DNA of 32,679 nucleotides. Source: Methylocapsa sp. S129 (GTDB lineage Bacteria; Pseudomonadota; Alphaproteobacteria; Rhizobiales; Beijerinckiaceae). The translations under genes and the position numbers were made by a program. Location: assembly GCF_009765995.1 (NCBI RefSeq), contig NZ_LMUI01000017.1, positions 1 to 32,679 on the forward strand. The letters run 5' to 3'. Each line of letters starts with the position of its first letter. Position 1 is the first letter of the stretch. Positions 2,943 to 15,187 of this stretch are shown in pieces. The notes beneath the pieces were generated by a model. The model did not search any database and was not told the DNA's origin. It was given only the letters and a program-made list of their open reading frames with translations.

Positions 2943-5099
2943 TCAAGGCTTGGCTTCGCCCGCGTTTGAAGACGCGCCAGGCGTCTCCGGCGCCGGAGAC
3001 GCAGGGGCGTCCGGCGCTGGAGCTGGCGCGGCGGGCGGCGCGAGCCGGCTCAGTTCGGCGACCGCGCCGCTATATTCGATGAAGCTCTTCGGGCAGGCGT
3101 CGACGGCGCGTTTCAGCCCGGGGATCGCGGGCTCATTCAGGTTCTGCAGGACGAGCCATTCGGCGACGTAATAGTCAGCCTCGCAAACCTGATCGGGGTT
3201 GGCGGCGGAGTCGAGGGCGGACGGCGCCGACCGTGCGCCAAGATAGAGTTCGATGATCGGAAACGGCCAGGCGTTGGGCGACAGGCGGCTTGCCCAGAAG
3301 ATGAGCTCGTCGCGGCCGTTCTTGCCGGCGCGCGCCTGGGCCAGATAGAGCCATAGAGCGGAATAGGCATAGGGCTGGCGCCCGTTGGCTTGTTGGAAAT
3401 CGGCGACGGCCGCCGGGAATTCGCCGCGATAATAGTGCGCCCGGCCGCGCGTGAAATAGGCCGTGGCGAAATTGGGATCGATGCGGATCGCTTCGTCAAG
3501 CTCGCGCAATGCGTTTCCGTAATCGACCTTTTGCAGGAACAGATCGCCGCGTCCGGCATGGGCTAGCGCGAGATCGGGCTTGAGTTGCAGCGCGCGATCG
3601 AGATCGGCGGAGGCCTTGTCGAAATCGCCCTTGTTGGTCAGGATTTCGGCGCGCACGGACAGAAGCACCGGCTCGTCGGGTTTGATCGTCAGCGCGCGGT
3701 CGAGATCGGCGACCGCGTTGTCCGACTGGTGAAGGTTCTCGAAGGCGTTGGCGCGTTCGCCCAAAATCGCGGGGTCGTCGGGCGCGAGGCGCACCGCGGT
3801 GTTGAGATCGTCAAGCACGCGATCGTAGCGTTGATAGGTCTTGTTGGCGAGCGCACGCTGGAAGAACGCGGGAACGAAATCGGGCTTGTACGCAAGCGCC
3901 GAATCATAATTCTGCACGCCGCGATCAAGATCGCCCTGGCCGCTATAGGAATTGCCGCTGAAGACAAGCGCATAGGCGAGAAGATCGCGCCGCGCCGCTT
4001 CAATCGCGCTGTGGAAGACGACGATCGCCACGCCGACGGCGGCGAGCGCGCCGAATGCGAGAATGCGGCCCTTGCGAGAGATGCGCGGCGCACCGGCGGG
4101 CCTCGGCGCCGCGCGCGACAGGAGAAGCGCGCCGATCATGGCCGAAGCCGCGCAGACGCTCAGGGCGTCGAGCGTCATCACCGGCATGACGCCGGCGATG
4201 GTCGCGTTGACCGCAAGGGCGATCCAGATCGCCGACGGGATCAGCAGCAGGGCGCCCAGGATGAGCCCGGTCGCGCGGGCGAAGACAAATCTATTGAGCC
4301 AGTTCGGTCGTACGGGCCGCGCCGCGCCGCCCGGTTCGGATTCGACGCTGGCCTTTTTGCGAAGCCCAAGGATGACGCGCGTCGCGCCAATGCAGACGGC
4401 GACCACCGCGGCCAGATAGAGGATCGAAAGCAGCGTCGGCGTCGTCGCCGAAAAGGCAAGCGCGAACTGGTTGAGCGGCGTTGGATAAAGCGGCGCATGC
4501 TGACCCAGAAAGAGCGGGAAGTCGTAAAATCCATGCAAGAGCGCGGCGATGAGCCAGGCGCGCATGATGAGGAGCGTGCGCATCGCGCCGCGCGGCTCGG
4601 ACTCGGCGCGGACGAGGCCGCCGCCCAGCACGATGCCGATCAGCGCATGAATCGGCACCGCCGTCGCCATGCGCGCCAGCGCGGTCGCGGGCCAACGATC
4701 CGCGGCGGCGAAAACATAGAGAACATTCTCGAGGAGCGCGAAGCCGAGCGCGACCGACGCGACGCCGAGAACCAGGTCGCGCGCCGTGCGGCGCTCGTAA
4801 TAGGGGCGCACGAAGAAATAGGCCGCCGCGAGCTTGGCTCCCTCCTCGGCGAGGCCGGCAAGGACGAAGGCTTTGATCGTCGCCTCCCAGAACGGCGTCA
4901 GAACGAGATGGAGCCTGGCTTCGAAGAAATCGACCGCGGCCGGCAGGAAGGCCACCATCGCGCCGCTAGCGATGGCGACGCCAAACAGCCGCGGCGAGAA
5001 GCTCTTGCGCCCCAGCCGCAGGATGACGAGGGCGACGAGCATGCCGCCGATCAGGGCGGCCGGCAGCGCCAGAATGCGCGAGGACAGAACCAGAATCAT
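2943..5099 (-). CDS. PrsW-family intramembrane glutamic-type protease fused to a TPR domain
   Basis: The product has 718 residues. The N-terminal half is a polytopic membrane region carrying the PrsW/CAAX-protease-like motifs: EEGAK with Glu85-Glu86, LLENVLY with Glu124, His151 in a membrane helix, and LLHGFYDF with His189 and Asp193. Further predicted membrane helices lie near 220-245, 273-300, 310-328 and 346-363. From about residue 380 to 580 there are four to five tetratricopeptide repeats with the regular 34-residue spacing (for example GDLDRGVQNYDSAL and GDFDKASADLDRAL), then a less regular helical part and a Pro/Ala-rich tail from about 688. PrsW of Bacillus cleaves the anti-sigma factor RsiW. 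The substrate here is unknown, and the TPR part could dock partners. The DUF2628 gene lies 35 nt upstream on the same strand, suggesting an operon. Confidence 0.85.
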   Translation of the reverse strand: MILVLSSRILALPAALIGGMLVALVILRLGRKSFSPRLFGVAIASGAMVAFLPAAVDFFEARLHLVLTPFWEATIKAFVLAGLAEEGAKLAAAYFFVRPYYERRTARDLVLGVASVALGFALLENVLYVFAAADRWPATALARMATAVPIHALIGIVLGGGLVRAESEPRGAMRTLLIMRAWLIAALLHGFYDFPLFLGQHAPLYPTPLNQFALAFSATTPTLLSILYLAAVVAVCIGATRVILGLRKKASVESEPGGAARPVRPNWLNRFVFARATGLILGALLLIPSAIWIALAVNATIAGVMPVMTLDALSVCAASAMIGALLLSRAAPRPAGAPRISRKGRILAFGALAAVGVAIVVFHSAIEAARRDLLAYALVFSGNSYSGQGDLDRGVQNYDSALAYKPDFVPAFFQRALANKTYQRYDRVLDDLNTAVRLAPDDPAILGERANAFENLHQSDNAVADLDRALTIKPDEPVLLSVRAEILTNKGDFDKASADLDRALQLKPDLALAHAGRGDLFLQKVDYGNALRELDEAIRIDPNFATAYFTRGRAHYYRGEFPAAVADFQQANGRQPYAYSALWLYLAQARAGKNGRDELIFWASRLSPNAWPFPIIELYLGARSAPSALDSAANPDQVCEADYYVAEWLVLQNLNEPAIPGLKRAVDACPKSFIEYSGAVAELSRLAPPAAPAPAPDAPASPAPETPGASSNAGEAKP

Positions 5100-10522: not shown

Positions 10523-11395
10523 ATGGGCAATCTCGAAGGCGCCGTTAGCACAACGGCGGATGCGCTCAGTGTTTTACGGGCCGACCAAGACCTGATGCGA
10601 ACGGTGGGCGCGCAGGATCCTTATGCGCATTATTTCGTCTCTGATGAGGGTGAACGGCTTGTCTCGCTGGCTACCCAGATAGACCCGGTCGTGCGGCCGT
10701 TCAGCGCCGCGCGCTATCGTTGGTTCAGCGACCGGATCGAGGACGCGGTGAAAGCTTACGCTCAGGTCATCGTGCTCGGAGCCGGGTTTGATACGCGCGC
10801 TATCTGGATGTCGGCGTTCCATCCCGGCGGCTGCATGGTGTTCGAGGTTGATCGTTCCGAGATGTTGGCAACGAAATACGCGGTGCTTCGCGATCATGGG
10901 GTCGCCAAACCCGACTGGGTTGCATCCGTCGGCGCCGACCTCGCCAGCGATGACGTCGGCGCAGCGCTCGTGAAGGCTGGCTGGGACACAAAGATCAAGA
11001 CTTTTGTCATGGCCGAGGGCGTGGTTTTCTTTTTGCCCGCGCAAGCTGTTTCGAACTTGCTCTCCCCGACGAAGCTGGGACTCGTCGAAGGCAGTAAAGT
11101 TGCCTTGGATTTCTGGACGCGGGCTCGCCTTGAGCGTCTAAATCGAAGAATGTTCGAACTTCGCGGTATGGAGCTATTTAAAAAATTCCCTGCGGGCGAT
11201 CAACTCAGCGACGTGATTAGCACATTGAAAGAGATGGGCTATTCCACCGCGAACATTATGCCATTGATTGATTACGCACAGAACTTTTGGCCGGATTCGG
11301 AAACGTGGAAGGAAGCCGACGGCTGGGCCCTAATCGAGATGCAGGTAGGTAATTTGCGGCCTCTTCGCAGACGAGACGGCGGCGCCGGCGCCTGA
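10523..11395 (+). CDS. Class I SAM-dependent methyltransferase, LCMT/PPM type
   Basis: The product has 290 residues. The pattern is that of the leucine carboxyl methyltransferase-like family (PF04072/TIGR00027 type): an N-terminal RYRWFSDRIEDA block (about 64-75), the SAM-binding QVIVLGAGFDTRA (81-93), the acidic FEVDRS loop (107-112) and MAEGVVFFLP (163-172). Relatives methylate carboxyl or hydroxyl groups of small molecules or proteins. The partner is inferred from the preceding ThDP-enzyme gene, 36 nt upstream on the same strand: the product of that enzyme could be the methyl acceptor. The ribosome binding site is weak. Codon use resembles the ThDP gene more than dnaE, consistent with one acquired unit. 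Confidence 0.82.
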   Translation: MGNLEGAVSTTADALSVLRADQDLMRTVGAQDPYAHYFVSDEGERLVSLATQIDPVVRPFSAARYRWFSDRIEDAVKAYAQVIVLGAGFDTRAIWMSAFHPGGCMVFEVDRSEMLATKYAVLRDHGVAKPDWVASVGADLASDDVGAALVKAGWDTKIKTFVMAEGVVFFLPAQAVSNLLSPTKLGLVEGSKVALDFWTRARLERLNRRMFELRGMELFKKFPAGDQLSDVISTLKEMGYSTANIMPLIDYAQNFWPDSETWKEADGWALIEMQVGNLRPLRRRDGGAGA

Positions 11396-11485
11396 TCGGG
11401 GACGGGGCAAACCAAGACTGGACAGCTTTGGGCCTATGCGCGCGACGATCGGCATCGGTGTCGGGAGTCATCTTGGCCCGAGACC

Positions 11486-11518
11486 TTGACGTGAACATAA
11501 AAAGAACATAGAGAGAAC
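11486..11518 (+). promoter_or_regulatory. Double SOS box (LexA operator) on a putative promoter
   Basis: Three GAAC half-sites begin at 11493, 11504 and 11515, each separated by exactly 7 nt. This makes two overlapping copies of the alphaproteobacterial LexA operator GAAC-N7-GAAC. A -35-like TTGACG (11486-11491) lies directly before it and a weak -10-like TAGAGA (11509-11514) lies inside it at 17-nt spacing, so bound LexA would block this promoter. The first gene downstream is the 34-codon ORF at 11545, then dnaE. Confidence 0.75.
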
Positions 11519-11544
11519 CTTCGGTCTTTCGCCCGGAGGTCGTC

Positions 11545-11649
11545 ATGATGTATCGCGCTGTTGGAATCATGCAGGATATGGTCGAGCTTGCCGCGCTGGC
11601 GGCGTTTTTGGCGATGATCGCCATGGTCGCGCGTTCGCTCGGCGCGTGA
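11545..11649 (+). CDS. 34-residue single-span membrane peptide under SOS control (SidA-like by context)
   Basis: A strong ribosome binding site GGAGG (11535-11539) lies 5 nt before ATG at 11545; the next codon is also ATG, at 8-nt spacing. The frame ends with TGA at 11647-11649. Residues 1-11 are polar (Arg4, Gln10, Asp11), 12-29 form a hydrophobic helix rich in Ala, Met and Leu (ELAALAAFLAMIAMVA), and the tail RSLGA is short and basic, so a single inner-membrane span is expected. A double SOS box lies 26 nt upstream of the start. In Caulobacter crescentus the 29-residue SidA is an SOS-induced membrane peptide that blocks division through FtsW/FtsN. Size, topology and control match here, but homology is not shown. 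It could also be a short leader peptide for dnaE. Confidence 0.65.
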   Translation: MMYRAVGIMQDMVELAALAAFLAMIAMVARSLGA

Positions 11650-11728
11650 TCGCTGTTGACGACTCAGGGGCGAGCCTCGACTAGGGGTCGCGCGGCGCAG
11701 ACAATGGTGGCCGTCCAGGGGAAGAATT

Positions 11729-14700
11729 GTGGATCCTTCGATCATCAAATCCGTCGGCTTCGTGCATTTGCACGTTCATTCCTCCTATTCGCTGCGCGAA
11801 GGCGCGCTGACGATCGAAACCCTGGCCAAGCTCGCCAAGGCCGATGGGATGCCGGCTTTGGCGATCACCGACACCAACAATTTGTTCGGCGCCCTCGAGT
11901 TTTCCGAGAAACTCTCGAAATCGGGCGTCCAGGCGATTATCGGCGCGCAGATCGCGGTGGATTTTAGCGATGCGCCGGCGTCTTCGAGCCCGCGCGCCGA
12001 TCAGCGCCTGGCGCGCGCGCCGATCGTACTGCTCGCGCAAAACGAGGCCGGCTACGTCAACCTGATGCGGCTCGCCAGCAAGGTCTGGCTTGAGCCCAAT
12101 GATTCGGACGAGCCGCATGTTCGTTTCGACGCGCTGGGCGCGGTCGACGGCCTGATCGCGCTGACGGGCGGTCCAGCCGGGCCGATCGACCGCGCCTTGA
12201 CGGGCGGGTTCGCCGATCTCGCGCGTGCGCGGCTGATGCGTCTGGCGGCGCTGTTCGACAGGCGCCTTTATGTCGAATTGCAGCGTCACGACATCGAATC
12301 CGAGAAGGCCGTCGAGCCGCAATTGCTCGATCTCGCCTATTCCCTTTCGCTGCCGCTGGTCGCCGCCAACGAGCCCTATTTCGCGGGGCCTGCTGATCAT
12401 GAAGCGCAGGACGCCTTGCTCTGCATCGCGGATGGCGCGCTGGTCGGCGCGGGCGACCGGCGCCGTCTCTCCGCCGAGCATGGCTTCAAGACGCGGGCCG
12501 AAATGGTCAAGCTGTTTGCGGATCTGCCGGAGGCGACCGGCGCCAGCGTCGAGATCGCGCTGCGTTGCGCGTTCCGCACCCAGACGCGCAAGCCGATCTT
12601 GCCGCGCTTCACCTCGGCCGCCGGCGATGCGCTCGATGAGGTCGGCGAGCTGCGCGCGCAGGCGGCGCAAGGGCTTGCGGCACGGCTTGCCCATTACGGC
12701 TGCGCGCCGGGATTTACTCAAAGCGACTATGAAGCGCGGCTCGCCTTTGAGCTCGACGTCATCGTCAATATGAAGTTCCCCGGCTATTTCCTGATCGTCG
12801 CCGACTTCATCCAATGGGCCAAGCGGCAGGATATTCCCGTCGGGCCGGGGCGCGGTTCGGGCGCCGGCTCGCTGGTCGCCTGGTCGCTGACCATCACCGA
12901 TCTCGATCCCATCCGCTTCGGCCTGCTGTTCGAGCGCTTCCTCAATCCCGAACGCGTGTCGATGCCCGACTTCGACATCGATTTTTGTCAGGATCGGCGC
13001 GACGAAGTGATCGCCTATGTGCGCCAGCGCTACGGCGCCGATCGCGTCGCGCAGATCATCACCTTCGGTTCGTTCCTGGCGCGCGGCGTCATGCGCAATG
13101 TCGGGCGCGTGCTGGAATTGCCGCTCGGCCAGGTCGACAAACTCGCCAAACTGGTGCCGCAAAACCCGGCCAATCCCGTCACGCTGAAACAGGCGTTTGT
13201 CGACGAGCCGCGCCTCAGCGAAGCTTCGGAAGCCGATCCGCGCGTCGCCAAAATGCTCGCCATCGCCGGACGGCTCGAGGGGCTTTATTCCAACGCCTCG
13301 ACCCATGCGGCCGGCGTGGTGATCGGCGATCGCCCGCTGGTCGAACTCGTGCCGCTCTATCGCGATCCGAAATCCGACATGCCGGCGACCCAATTCAACA
13401 TGAAATGGGTCGAATCGGCCGGCCTCGTGAAGTTCGATTTTCTCGGGTTGAAAACCCTGACCACGTTGCAGAAGGCCACGCGCCTGCTGGCGCGGCGCGG
13501 AATCGACATCGACTTGTCGAAAATTCCGCTCGACGATTCCAAAACCTATGAAATGCTGGGACGCGGCGAAACGATCGGCGTGTTCCAGGTGGAAAGCGGC
13601 GGCATGCGCAAGGCGCTGGTCGAAATGCGCGCCGATCGTTTTGAGGACATTATCGCGCTGGTCGCGCTTTATCGGCCGGGCCCGATGGCCAATATCCCGA
13701 CCTATTGCGCGCGCAAGCTCGGCCAGGAGAAACCTGACTATATCGAGCCGCGGATCGAGCCGGTTTTGCGCGAGACTTTCGGCGTCATCATCTATCAGGA
13801 ACAGGTGATGCAGATCGCGCAGGTTTTGTCGGGCTTTTCGCTCGGCGAGGCCGATCTTCTGCGCCGCGCGATGGGCAAGAAGATCAAGGCGGAAATGGAC
13901 GCGCAGCGCGCCCGTTTCGTCGAGGGTGCCGTCGCGCGCGGCCTCAGCCAGAGCAAGGCCGACGAGATTTTCGATCTGCTCGCCAAATTCGCCGATTATG
14001 GCTTCAACAAGAGCCATGCGGCGGCCTATGCCTTGATCGCCTATTGGACCGGCTGGTTCAAGGCCAACCATCCCGTCGAATTTCTCGCGGCGTCGATGAC
14101 GCTCGACAAGTCGAACACTGACAAGCTCGCCGAATTTCGCGGCGAGGCCATGCGTCTGGGCATCAAGGTGGCGCCCCCTTCCGTCAATGGCTCGGACGTC
14201 GATTTTGACGCGCGCGTCGGGGAGGACGGCGCGCTTTCGATCGCCTATGCGCTGTCGGCGGTCAAAGGGGTGGGCGAAGCGCAGGCGGCCGCGATTGTCG
14301 CCGCGCGCGGCGACAGACCGTTCTCTTCGTTGAGCGATATGGCGCGCCGTATCGATCCGCGCGCCGTCAACAAGAAAGCGCTGGAGAGTCTGGCCGCCGC
14401 CGGCGCTTTCGATGAAATCGAGCCTGATCGCGCCATCGCCTTCGCCGCGATGGAGGCGGCTCTCGCGCTCGCCAATCGCACCGCCCAGGAGAAGGCGGCG
14501 GGGCAAAGCGGGCTGTTTGGCGAAAGCGACAACGCGCCGCTGAAAGTGCGCGCTTCGCCCTGGCCGGCGGCCGACCGGCTGCGGCGCGAATTCGACGCGG
14601 TCGGGTTTTTCCTCTCAGGCCATCCCTTGGACGCCTATCAAAGCGTCCTGACCAAACTGCGCATCACGCGCTGGGCCGATTTTGCGCGCGGCGTGCGGCG

Positions 14701-15187
14701 GGGCGCGACATCGGCGCGCCTTGCCGCCAGCGTGCTCGATCGCTCGGAGCGGCGCACCAAATCGGGATCGAAGCTTGGCATCGTCCAGCTTTCCGATCCG
14801 TCCGGCCAGTACGAGGCGATTCTTTTCGCCGAAGGTCTCGCCCAATATCGCGATCTCCTGGAAAAGGGCTCGGACGTGCTGGTGACTTTGCAAGGCGCGG
14901 TCGAAGGCGAGGATGTCCGCGCGCGCATCATCCATGTCGAAGCGCTCGCCTTGGCGGCCGCGCGCATTCACAAGGGCCTGCGGATTTTTCTGCGCGACGA
15001 GGCGCCGCTGCCCTCCATCGAGGAGCGGCTGCAGACCAAAGGCGAGGGCGAAGTGTCGCTTGTCGTCCTGCTCGGCCCGGCGCAGGGCGAGGTCGAGATC
15101 AAGCTGCCCGGCCGCTTTGCGGTCTCGGCCTCGATCGCGGGCGCGTTGAAAGCGGTCGCAGGAGTGGTGGCGGTCGAGCACGTCTGA
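11729..15187 (+). CDS. dnaE: DNA polymerase III subunit alpha
   Basis: The product has 1152 residues, normal for DnaE1. It is the catalytic subunit of the replicative polymerase. The N-terminal PHP domain starts with HLHVHSSYS (His13, His15, His17). The palm carries the catalytic acidic residues in MPDFDIDF (Asp416, Asp418) and KFDFLGLKTL (Asp570). QSGLF at 926-930 fits the internal beta-clamp binding motif, and an OB-fold lies near 977-1075. The length and N-terminus fit the replicative enzyme rather than the error-prone DnaE2; no imuA or imuB is nearby. The GTG start at 11729 is preceded by AGGGGAAG. No terminator separates it from the small SOS-controlled ORF 79 nt upstream, so read-through from that promoter is possible. 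Confidence 0.97.
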   Translation: MDPSIIKSVGFVHLHVHSSYSLREGALTIETLAKLAKADGMPALAITDTNNLFGALEFSEKLSKSGVQAIIGAQIAVDFSDAPASSSPRADQRLARAPIVLLAQNEAGYVNLMRLASKVWLEPNDSDEPHVRFDALGAVDGLIALTGGPAGPIDRALTGGFADLARARLMRLAALFDRRLYVELQRHDIESEKAVEPQLLDLAYSLSLPLVAANEPYFAGPADHEAQDALLCIADGALVGAGDRRRLSAEHGFKTRAEMVKLFADLPEATGASVEIALRCAFRTQTRKPILPRFTSAAGDALDEVGELRAQAAQGLAARLAHYGCAPGFTQSDYEARLAFELDVIVNMKFPGYFLIVADFIQWAKRQDIPVGPGRGSGAGSLVAWSLTITDLDPIRFGLLFERFLNPERVSMPDFDIDFCQDRRDEVIAYVRQRYGADRVAQIITFGSFLARGVMRNVGRVLELPLGQVDKLAKLVPQNPANPVTLKQAFVDEPRLSEASEADPRVAKMLAIAGRLEGLYSNASTHAAGVVIGDRPLVELVPLYRDPKSDMPATQFNMKWVESAGLVKFDFLGLKTLTTLQKATRLLARRGIDIDLSKIPLDDSKTYEMLGRGETIGVFQVESGGMRKALVEMRADRFEDIIALVALYRPGPMANIPTYCARKLGQEKPDYIEPRIEPVLRETFGVIIYQEQVMQIAQVLSGFSLGEADLLRRAMGKKIKAEMDAQRARFVEGAVARGLSQSKADEIFDLLAKFADYGFNKSHAAAYALIAYWTGWFKANHPVEFLAASMTLDKSNTDKLAEFRGEAMRLGIKVAPPSVNGSDVDFDARVGEDGALSIAYALSAVKGVGEAQAAAIVAARGDRPFSSLSDMARRIDPRAVNKKALESLAAAGAFDEIEPDRAIAFAAMEAALALANRTAQEKAAGQSGLFGESDNAPLKVRASPWPAADRLRREFDAVGFFLSGHPLDAYQSVLTKLRITRWADFARGVRRGATSARLAASVLDRSERRTKSGSKLGIVQLSDPSGQYEAILFAEGLAQYRDLLEKGSDVLVTLQGAVEGEDVRARIIHVEALALAAARIHKGLRIFLRDEAPLPSIEERLQTKGEGEVSLVVLLGPAQGEVEIKLPGRFAVSASIAGALKAVAGVVAVEHV

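What the first reader, a model, noticed from the sequence alone, without database searches (positions are those of the whole stretch)
11486..11649. SOS-controlled 34-residue membrane peptide, possibly a SidA-like division inhibitor
Three GAAC half-sites with perfect 7-nt gaps (two overlapping alphaproteobacterial LexA boxes) sit on a putative promoter. Twenty-six nt downstream, a 34-codon ORF with a strong GGAGG site encodes a single hydrophobic helix with short polar ends. SOS-induced single-span peptides that stop division (SidA in Caulobacter) have this size, topology and control. Such short ORFs are usually missed by annotation, so this may be an undescribed checkpoint peptide in another lineage.
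Basis: partly seen in the sequence, partly recalled or inferred. Interest (0 to 1): 0.78.

Follow-up and report, generated by a model that had tools for sequence, protein, structure and literature searches.

The report
SOS-controlled SidA-type division-inhibitor peptide
The 34-residue reading frame looks like a real, unannotated membrane peptide under DNA-damage (LexA) control and the counterpart of Caulobacter's cell-division inhibitor SidA, with relatives upstream of the replicative polymerase gene dnaE in many related bacteria; that it stops division in this species is inferred, not tested.

Summary
In detail: two overlapping GAAC-N7-GAAC boxes lie on a TTGACG/TAGAGA promoter, followed by GGAGG and a 34-codon ORF, 79 nt before dnaE. 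It is not chance. A profile search finds the same short ORF in 102 of 298 genomes of its family at E<=1e-3 (104 hits). Of these 104, 80 have an exact LexA-type box within 130 nt upstream and 21 a one-mismatch box; control windows give 0 and 9 of 129. The ORF is under purifying selection (dN/dS 0.03-0.18 in four groups). dnaE follows in 62 of 73 strong hits fetched, but in 7 of 10 congeners peptide plus operator lie elsewhere, so they form their own unit. In Caulobacter vibrioides the 29-aa ORF at the same place upstream of dnaE scores 72.4 bits against NCBI's SidA model (cut-off 35). Profiles of the two groups align end to end (89%; 0 of 300 permutations). The window peptide itself does not match the SidA model. 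Best reading: an ortholog of SidA, extending an FtsW-directed SOS checkpoint known from Caulobacter to the window's order and beyond. Operator, position, selection and helix are computed; damage induction, FtsW binding and division arrest are inferred.

The parts
11486..11491 (+). -35-like hexamer TTGACG
   Evidence: Sequence; TTGA[CT]. followed after 17-18 nt by TA.... in 10 of 10 same-genus loci printed; strict promoter scan did not call it
11493..11507 (+). LexA-type box 1, GAACATAAAAAGAAC, in the promoter spacer
   Evidence: an exact or one-mismatch box within 130 nt upstream in 101 of 104 family-level homologs
11504..11518 (+). LexA-type box 2, GAACATAGAGAGAAC, overlapping box 1
   Evidence: overlapping tandem boxes also in L003, L036 and Sinorhizobium K101
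11509..11514 (+). -10-like hexamer TAGAGA
   Evidence: sequence; 17 nt after the -35
11535..11539 (+). Shine-Dalgarno GGAGG
   Evidence: sequence
11545..11649 (+). 34-aa single-helix membrane peptide, proposed SidA ortholog
   Evidence: ORF; helix; homologs; purifying selection; profile match to Caulobacteraceae SidA
11729..15187 (+). dnaE, DNA polymerase III alpha (1152 aa from GTG; start inferred)
   Evidence: Pfam PF07733, PF17657, PF02811; frequent downstream neighbour of the peptide

Best explanation
The ORF encodes an ortholog of SidA, the SOS-induced division inhibitor of Caulobacter. In undamaged cells LexA sits on the overlapping GAAC-N7-GAAC operators at the promoter and keeps it off. 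When RecA triggers LexA self-cleavage, the transcript is made, and the 34-residue peptide inserts as one helix in the inner membrane. By analogy with SidA it then binds the late divisome (FtsW, with FtsN/FtsI) and holds septal wall synthesis inactive until repair is done. Shown here by computation: ORF, operator, conservation, coding selection, position before dnaE, profile similarity to SidA. Inferred: LexA binding, damage induction, membrane insertion, FtsW as target, division arrest.
For: Homologs: 102 of 298 family genomes at E<=1e-3 (recounted); 152 of 397 order genomes at E<=0.01. Boxes within 130 nt: 80 exact, 21 one-mismatch, 3 none of 104; control windows 0 exact and 9 one-mismatch of 129; shuffled upstreams 0.6 exact of 100. 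Second test on 40 loci picked before their upstream was seen, none identical to a profile row, 160 nt read: 28 exact, 8 one-mismatch, 4 none; dnaE downstream in 34. dN/dS 0.18 and 0.16 in the genus, 0.09 and 0.03 in two other groups, 0.25 for Caulobacter sidA. Caulobacter vibrioides has a 29-aa ORF with a box upstream of dnaE that matches NCBIfam NF033228 SidA at 72.4 bits, cut-off 35. hhalign of the order's profile to Caulobacteraceae SidA: 89%, 29 columns, no gap; 0 of 300 column permutations reach the score. Intermediates: Parvibaculum and Maricaulis, same place, exact box; Parvibaculum scores 16.2 bits to the SidA model. The genome's own lexA has GAACACAGAGTGAAC upstream.
Against: The window peptide and all 30 members of A2 get no hit to the SidA model even at E<=10; of 23 A5 rows only 2 do, the better one at 16.2 bits, under the cut-off. 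A sequence-only profile search of 14 Caulobacteraceae genomes put the ORF next to dnaE first in only two (E 0.10 and 0.29), listed it in a third (E 4.5) and missed it in the other 11. The Caulobacteraceae F-V-W-M core is not conserved in the window. In 7 of 10 congeners the peptide is not beside dnaE. Some loci lack an exact box: family f44 and 7 of 14 Caulobacteraceae. Outside the order the class-wide profile search found nothing convincing. No expression or phenotype data for this organism.
Confidence: 0.72

Rival explanations
1. The ORF is a leader (upstream ORF) of dnaE: its translation, not its product, tunes dnaE expression in the SOS response.
For: dnaE follows in 62 of 73 strong and 24 of 27 weak hits fetched. 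PMC10117765 (passages read) reports a translated sORF25 in the 5'-UTR of S. meliloti dnaE1 and suggests that such sORFs may be uORFs. Two overlapping terminator-like matches lie inside the ORF at 11588-11604 (0.4 expected in the 451-base stretch scanned), as an attenuator would have.
Against: In 7 of 10 congeners peptide and operator are on another contig than dnaE, whose 600 nt upstream hold no exact box. The gap to dnaE varies from 5 to 382 nt. Selection acts on residues of a hydrophobic helix. The T-run of the terminator-like match is 5 in the window but 2-3 in nine congeners. No Rfam match. Caulobacter's ORF at this place is an effector by the literature (PMC4211646).
Confidence: 0.08
2. 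It is a TisB/DinQ-type SOS membrane toxin that disturbs the membrane rather than a division inhibitor.
For: Similar size, single helix and SOS control as TisB (recalled) and DinQ (start of abstract seen in the listing).
Against: Such loci carry an antisense RNA (for DinQ in that abstract, for TisB recalled); no Rfam family matches here, though an unknown antisense RNA was not excluded. Position and profile link it to SidA.
Confidence: 0.1
3. SidA-derived family whose target has changed in this lineage (for example another divisome or polar-growth enzyme).
For: Low sequence identity to Caulobacteraceae SidA, no F-V-W-M core in the window.
Against: Helix register and overall pattern are kept end to end. 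FtsW of this genome was not examined.
Confidence: 0.09
4. Chance ORF beside LexA boxes that serve dnaE only.
For: Boxes upstream of dnaE could serve dnaE alone.
Against: Purifying selection on the residues, and peptide with operator but without dnaE in several congeners.
Confidence: 0.01

Closest known systems
SidA of Caulobacter (NCBIfam NF033228 div_inhib_SidA; PMC4211646, passages read)
   Same: 29-34 aa, single hydrophobic helix, LexA-type box upstream, directly upstream of dnaE; profiles align over the whole peptide
   Different: Window peptide falls outside the SidA model; different core residues; in 7 of 10 congeners the unit is away from dnaE
DidA of Caulobacter (PMC4211646, passages read)
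   Same: Damage-induced single-span peptide acting through FtsW/I/N
   Different: 71 aa, SOS-independent (driven by DriD), binds FtsN
SosA (Staphylococcus, PMC6851548) and YneA (Bacillus, PMC13396833); starts of abstracts and passages read
   Same: SOS-induced small membrane division inhibitors; YneA is reported to act on FtsW
   Different: Other phylum; YneA has an extra LysM domain (recalled); no sequence link was tested
sORF25 of Sinorhizobium meliloti (PMC10117765, passages read)
   Same: Translated small ORF in the 5'-UTR of dnaE1; a Sinorhizobium relative here has a 28-aa SOS-boxed ORF at that place
   Different: Its sequence was not seen, so identity with this family is likely but unproven; the paper suggests a uORF role for such sORFs

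Membership tests
SidA | Score above the curated cut-off of NCBIfam NF033228 | tested here: not met
   No hit at E<=10 for the window peptide or any of 30 A2 members; C. vibrioides ORF 72.4 bits, Brevundimonas 33.5, just under 35
SidA | About 30 residues with one membrane helix | tested here: met
   34 aa; AF2 helix 2-33, pLDDT 94.6; hydropathy 2.36 against 2.22
SidA | LexA operator at the promoter | tested here: met
   Two exact boxes; binding itself not tested
SidA | Gene directly upstream of dnaE | tested here: met
   dnaE starts 79 nt after the stop; a 29-30-aa ORF at that place in 14 of 14 Caulobacteraceae genomes examined
SidA | Sequence homology | tested here: met
   hhalign 89%, E 2.3e-6 for one comparison, 0 of 300 permutations; direct genome search weak, first in 2 of 14
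SidA | Induced by DNA damage, binds FtsW, blocks division | not testable with these tools
   needs experiment
TisB/DinQ-type SOS toxin | Partner antisense RNA | tested here: inconclusive
   No Rfam match in 11300-11900; unknown RNAs not excluded
dnaE leader ORF | Always in cis to dnaE | tested here: not met
   In 7 of 10 congeners it lies elsewhere

The most novel reading that the evidence does not exclude
SidA is not a Caulobacter peculiarity but the Caulobacteraceae branch of an old alphaproteobacterial SOS checkpoint: a LexA-box/mini-membrane-peptide unit ancestral upstream of dnaE, found in over a third of the sampled genomes of the window's order and in several other families of the class, diverged beyond ordinary detection, not seen upstream of dnaE in the Rhodobacterales examined, and in the window's genus moved more than once as a self-contained unit.
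Probability: 0.7. Interest if true: 0.72.

Novelty: new member of a known kind. Interest (0 to 1): 0.62.

Why it matters
Bacteria without SulA must stop division in another way when DNA is damaged. In Alphaproteobacteria one SOS answer was known to me and to the papers read, SidA in Caulobacter. This places a counterpart at a predictable spot, upstream of dnaE, in many genera, including a Sinorhizobium and a Shinella genome, so the SOS division checkpoint of this order becomes directly testable in laboratory strains. It also supplies many natural variants of a possible FtsW-binding peptide for structure-function work, and shows how a 30-residue gene family can stay outside the profile libraries searched.

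Tried and rejected
The class-wide profile search with A3 gave no convincing hit outside the order; its other hits were mostly fragments of long ORFs. I therefore went by position (dnaE). Searches of plasmids with two peptides and of phages with one found nothing. The dnaE copies of Azospirillum, Paroceanicella and Methylobacterium bullatum on plasmid records had no exact box upstream; nor did 11 of 30 named genomes, nine of them Rhodobacterales by my reading of the names; for these the ORF itself was looked for without a box only in four. A constant promoter position across families was not borne out: TTGA[CT] close to the box in 11 of 75, so I claim the promoter geometry for the genus only. 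Literature: 10 searches in the open library showed no report of SidA outside Caulobacter in the listings and the passages I read; three papers that the term 'sida' had brought up proved to mean the Sidak test in the passages shown, and others in the listings were not opened. The founding paper (Modell 2011) and the Caulobacter regulon paper (da Rocha 2008) are not held, so what they say on conservation is unknown to me. Supplements could not be opened.

Full report
1. What is there. At 11493-11518 three GAAC half-sites form two overlapping GAAC-N7-GAAC boxes. This is, on the other strand, the direct-repeat operator reported for Caulobacter LexA (GTTCN7GTTC; PMC12700426 and PMC9578287, passages read). 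Box 1 lies in the 17-nt spacer between TTGACG (11486) and TAGAGA (11509). A similar layout, TTGA[CT]. then 17-18 nt then TA...., was printed for 10 of 10 same-genus loci; in eight the spacer holds an exact box, in L009 a one-mismatch box, and in L011 the exact box overlaps the -10 instead. GGAGG (11535-11539) precedes ATG at 11545; the ORF ends at 11649; dnaE starts at 11729. The gene upstream, 10523-11395, is an LCM-family methyltransferase. Within the window alone the box count is only mildly unusual (3 against 0.87 expected).

2. Is the peptide real? A search of 60 relatives with the 34-mer gave 20 genomes with a hit at E<=10; of the loci brought in, L001-L016 carry a matching short peptide and L017-L020 are pieces of long ORFs. 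Of L001-L016, 14 of 16 have an exact box within 150 nt; L009 and L010 have one-mismatch forms. A profile (A1) found hits in 207 of 298 family genomes at E<=1, of which 104 hits in 102 genomes have E<=1e-3 (counted). I read up to 130 nt upstream of all 104: 80 exact boxes (either orientation), 21 one-mismatch, 3 none; two of the three run into a contig end and one (L336, a second copy in G004) truly lacks a box. Windows 400-536 nt downstream of the same loci gave 0 exact and 9 one-mismatch of 129 (these loci include the 27 weaker ones below), so some of the 21 will be chance; shuffled upstreams gave 0.6 exact of 100 on average. Of 27 weaker hits that I picked had exact boxes, 2 one-mismatch, 6 none.

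3. Selection. Nei-Gojobori counts give dN/dS 0.18 and 0.16 in the window's genus (3 pairs and 1 pair, not including the window itself), 0.09 in a group of f36 genomes (45 pairs), 0.03 in f20/g45 (10 pairs), 0.25 for five Caulobacter sidA (10 pairs). Pairs are not independent and the ORF is short, but all are well under 1. The encoded residues are under selection, so the ORF is most likely translated.

4. Breadth. In the order, A2 gave 67 of 347 genomes at E<=0.1; of 29 loci examined, 26 had exact boxes, one had one-mismatch boxes, and two were pieces of long ORFs without any. A broader profile, A6, gave 152 of 397 genomes and 51 of 142 genera at E<=0.01. From its listing I picked 40 matches in 39 genomes by genus, before seeing their upstream; none is identical to an A6 row, though some are close relatives of one. 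Within 160 nt: 28 exact, 8 one-mismatch, 4 none; dnaE within 900 nt downstream in 34. Family f44 keeps the ORF, mostly with dnaE, but none of its loci read has an exact box. Named members: Shinella sp. PSBB067 and Sinorhizobium sp. K101 carry a 28-aa ORF with one and two exact boxes upstream of dnaE; the plasmid-collection gene table lists nothing there, but that table is nearly empty for these records.

5. Position and the link to SidA. dnaE follows within 900 nt in 62 of 73 strong hits fetched. So I searched dnaE across the class: 115 of 133 genomes had it, and I read the upstream of 70 of the 115. Eleven had an exact box plus ribosome site plus a short ORF that looks hydrophobic (hydropathy computed only for the two); nine of them lie outside the window's family, among 68 such genomes. 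To reach named Caulobacter genomes I used CcrM from PDB 6pbd and searched dnaE in the genomes of 30 of the 80 named loci. All 14 Caulobacteraceae have a 29-30-aa ORF just upstream of dnaE; 7 of 14 have an exact box. Parvibaculum (2), Maricaulis (2) and Marinicaulis (1) also have ORF and exact box; the other 11 have no exact box. The C. vibrioides ORF matches NCBI's equivalog model of SidA at 72.4 bits. All seven A4 rows match that model at E<=10, Brevundimonas at 33.5 bits, under the cut-off of 35. So SidA sits at the place where the window ORF sits.

6. Homology. hhalign of the order's profile A3 to Caulobacteraceae SidA A4: probability 89%, 29 aligned columns. Of 300 column permutations and 200 permutations of the core alone, none reaches the observed score of 25.8; circular rotations come closer (up to 23.0), as expected since they keep most of the local order. 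Against: the window peptide has no hit to the SidA model, and a direct profile search finds the ORF next to dnaE first in only two of 14 Caulobacteraceae genomes. Orthology thus rests on position, operator, length, helix and profile together.

7. An independent unit. In the window's genus, G000 and G010 keep peptide and dnaE together; G003 has them about 0.7 kb apart, with a transposase gene upstream of the peptide. In G001, G002, G004, G005, G006, G007 and G009 the peptide lies on another contig than dnaE, among other genes in the loci tested (for example a GST-type gene in L024, an aminotransferase in L026, a pyrH-type kinase in L008), with its own exact box in six and a one-mismatch box in G005; dnaE lacks an exact box in the 600 nt read. 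In G008, a 79% complete genome, none was found. This argues against a pure leader role for dnaE. For that role speak the usual neighbourhood and two terminator-like matches inside the ORF, but their T-run is not shared by nine congeners.

8. Mechanism. A box of the same kind upstream of the genome's own lexA (GAACACAGAGTGAAC) supports LexA as regulator. From PMC4211646 (passages read): SidA is a 29-aa inner-membrane protein that interacts with FtsW and FtsN, and ftsW/ftsI mutations suppress it. I infer the same for the window peptide. A paper on S. meliloti Ribo-seq (PMC10117765, passages read) notes a translated sORF25 in the 5'-UTR of dnaE1; its letters were not available, so I count it as likely, not proven, support.

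9. Verdict. Real, conserved, SOS-controlled by sequence, and most likely the ortholog of SidA. No Pfam or NCBIfam model matched the window peptide. New as an annotation and as a breadth claim, as far as the searches named reach; not a new kind of system.

Noticed in passing
L336 (G004:C219): A second family member in one congener without any LexA-type box in the stretch read; a possible paralog out of SOS control.
   Followed up: partly
L027, L030, L032, L033, L035, L045: Tandem operators of the form GAAC-N7-GAAT-N7-GAAC, with a shared degenerate middle half-site, recur; Caulobacter sidA has a similar GAAC...GAAT...GAAC run.
   Followed up: no
L046-L050 and L057-L060, L062, L066, L067, L069-L071: A second box in GTTC orientation lies upstream of the first (f20) or between box and start (f36), so two operators face each other.
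   Followed up: no
L391, L393, L394, L396, L466 (family f44): The short ORF upstream of dnaE is kept but no exact box is seen, as if SOS control was lost or altered.
   Followed up: partly
G000:C27:258895-259659 and G000:C5:229511-230281: Two further DnaE-type polymerases in the window's genome, probably dnaE2/imuC types (inferred).
   Followed up: no
window 11588-11604: Two overlapping terminator-like matches inside the ORF; the T-run is not shared by nine congeners.
   Followed up: partly
window 4890-4904: A lone GAAC-N7-GAAC inside the TPR/PrsW-type gene 2943-5099; likely chance.
   Followed up: no
Caulobacteraceae SidA rows (A4) against NCBIfam: Weak sub-threshold hits of SidA relatives to the small morphogenic membrane proteins SCO2097 family and MmpA (E 0.13 and 0.057); may be chance.
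   Followed up: no
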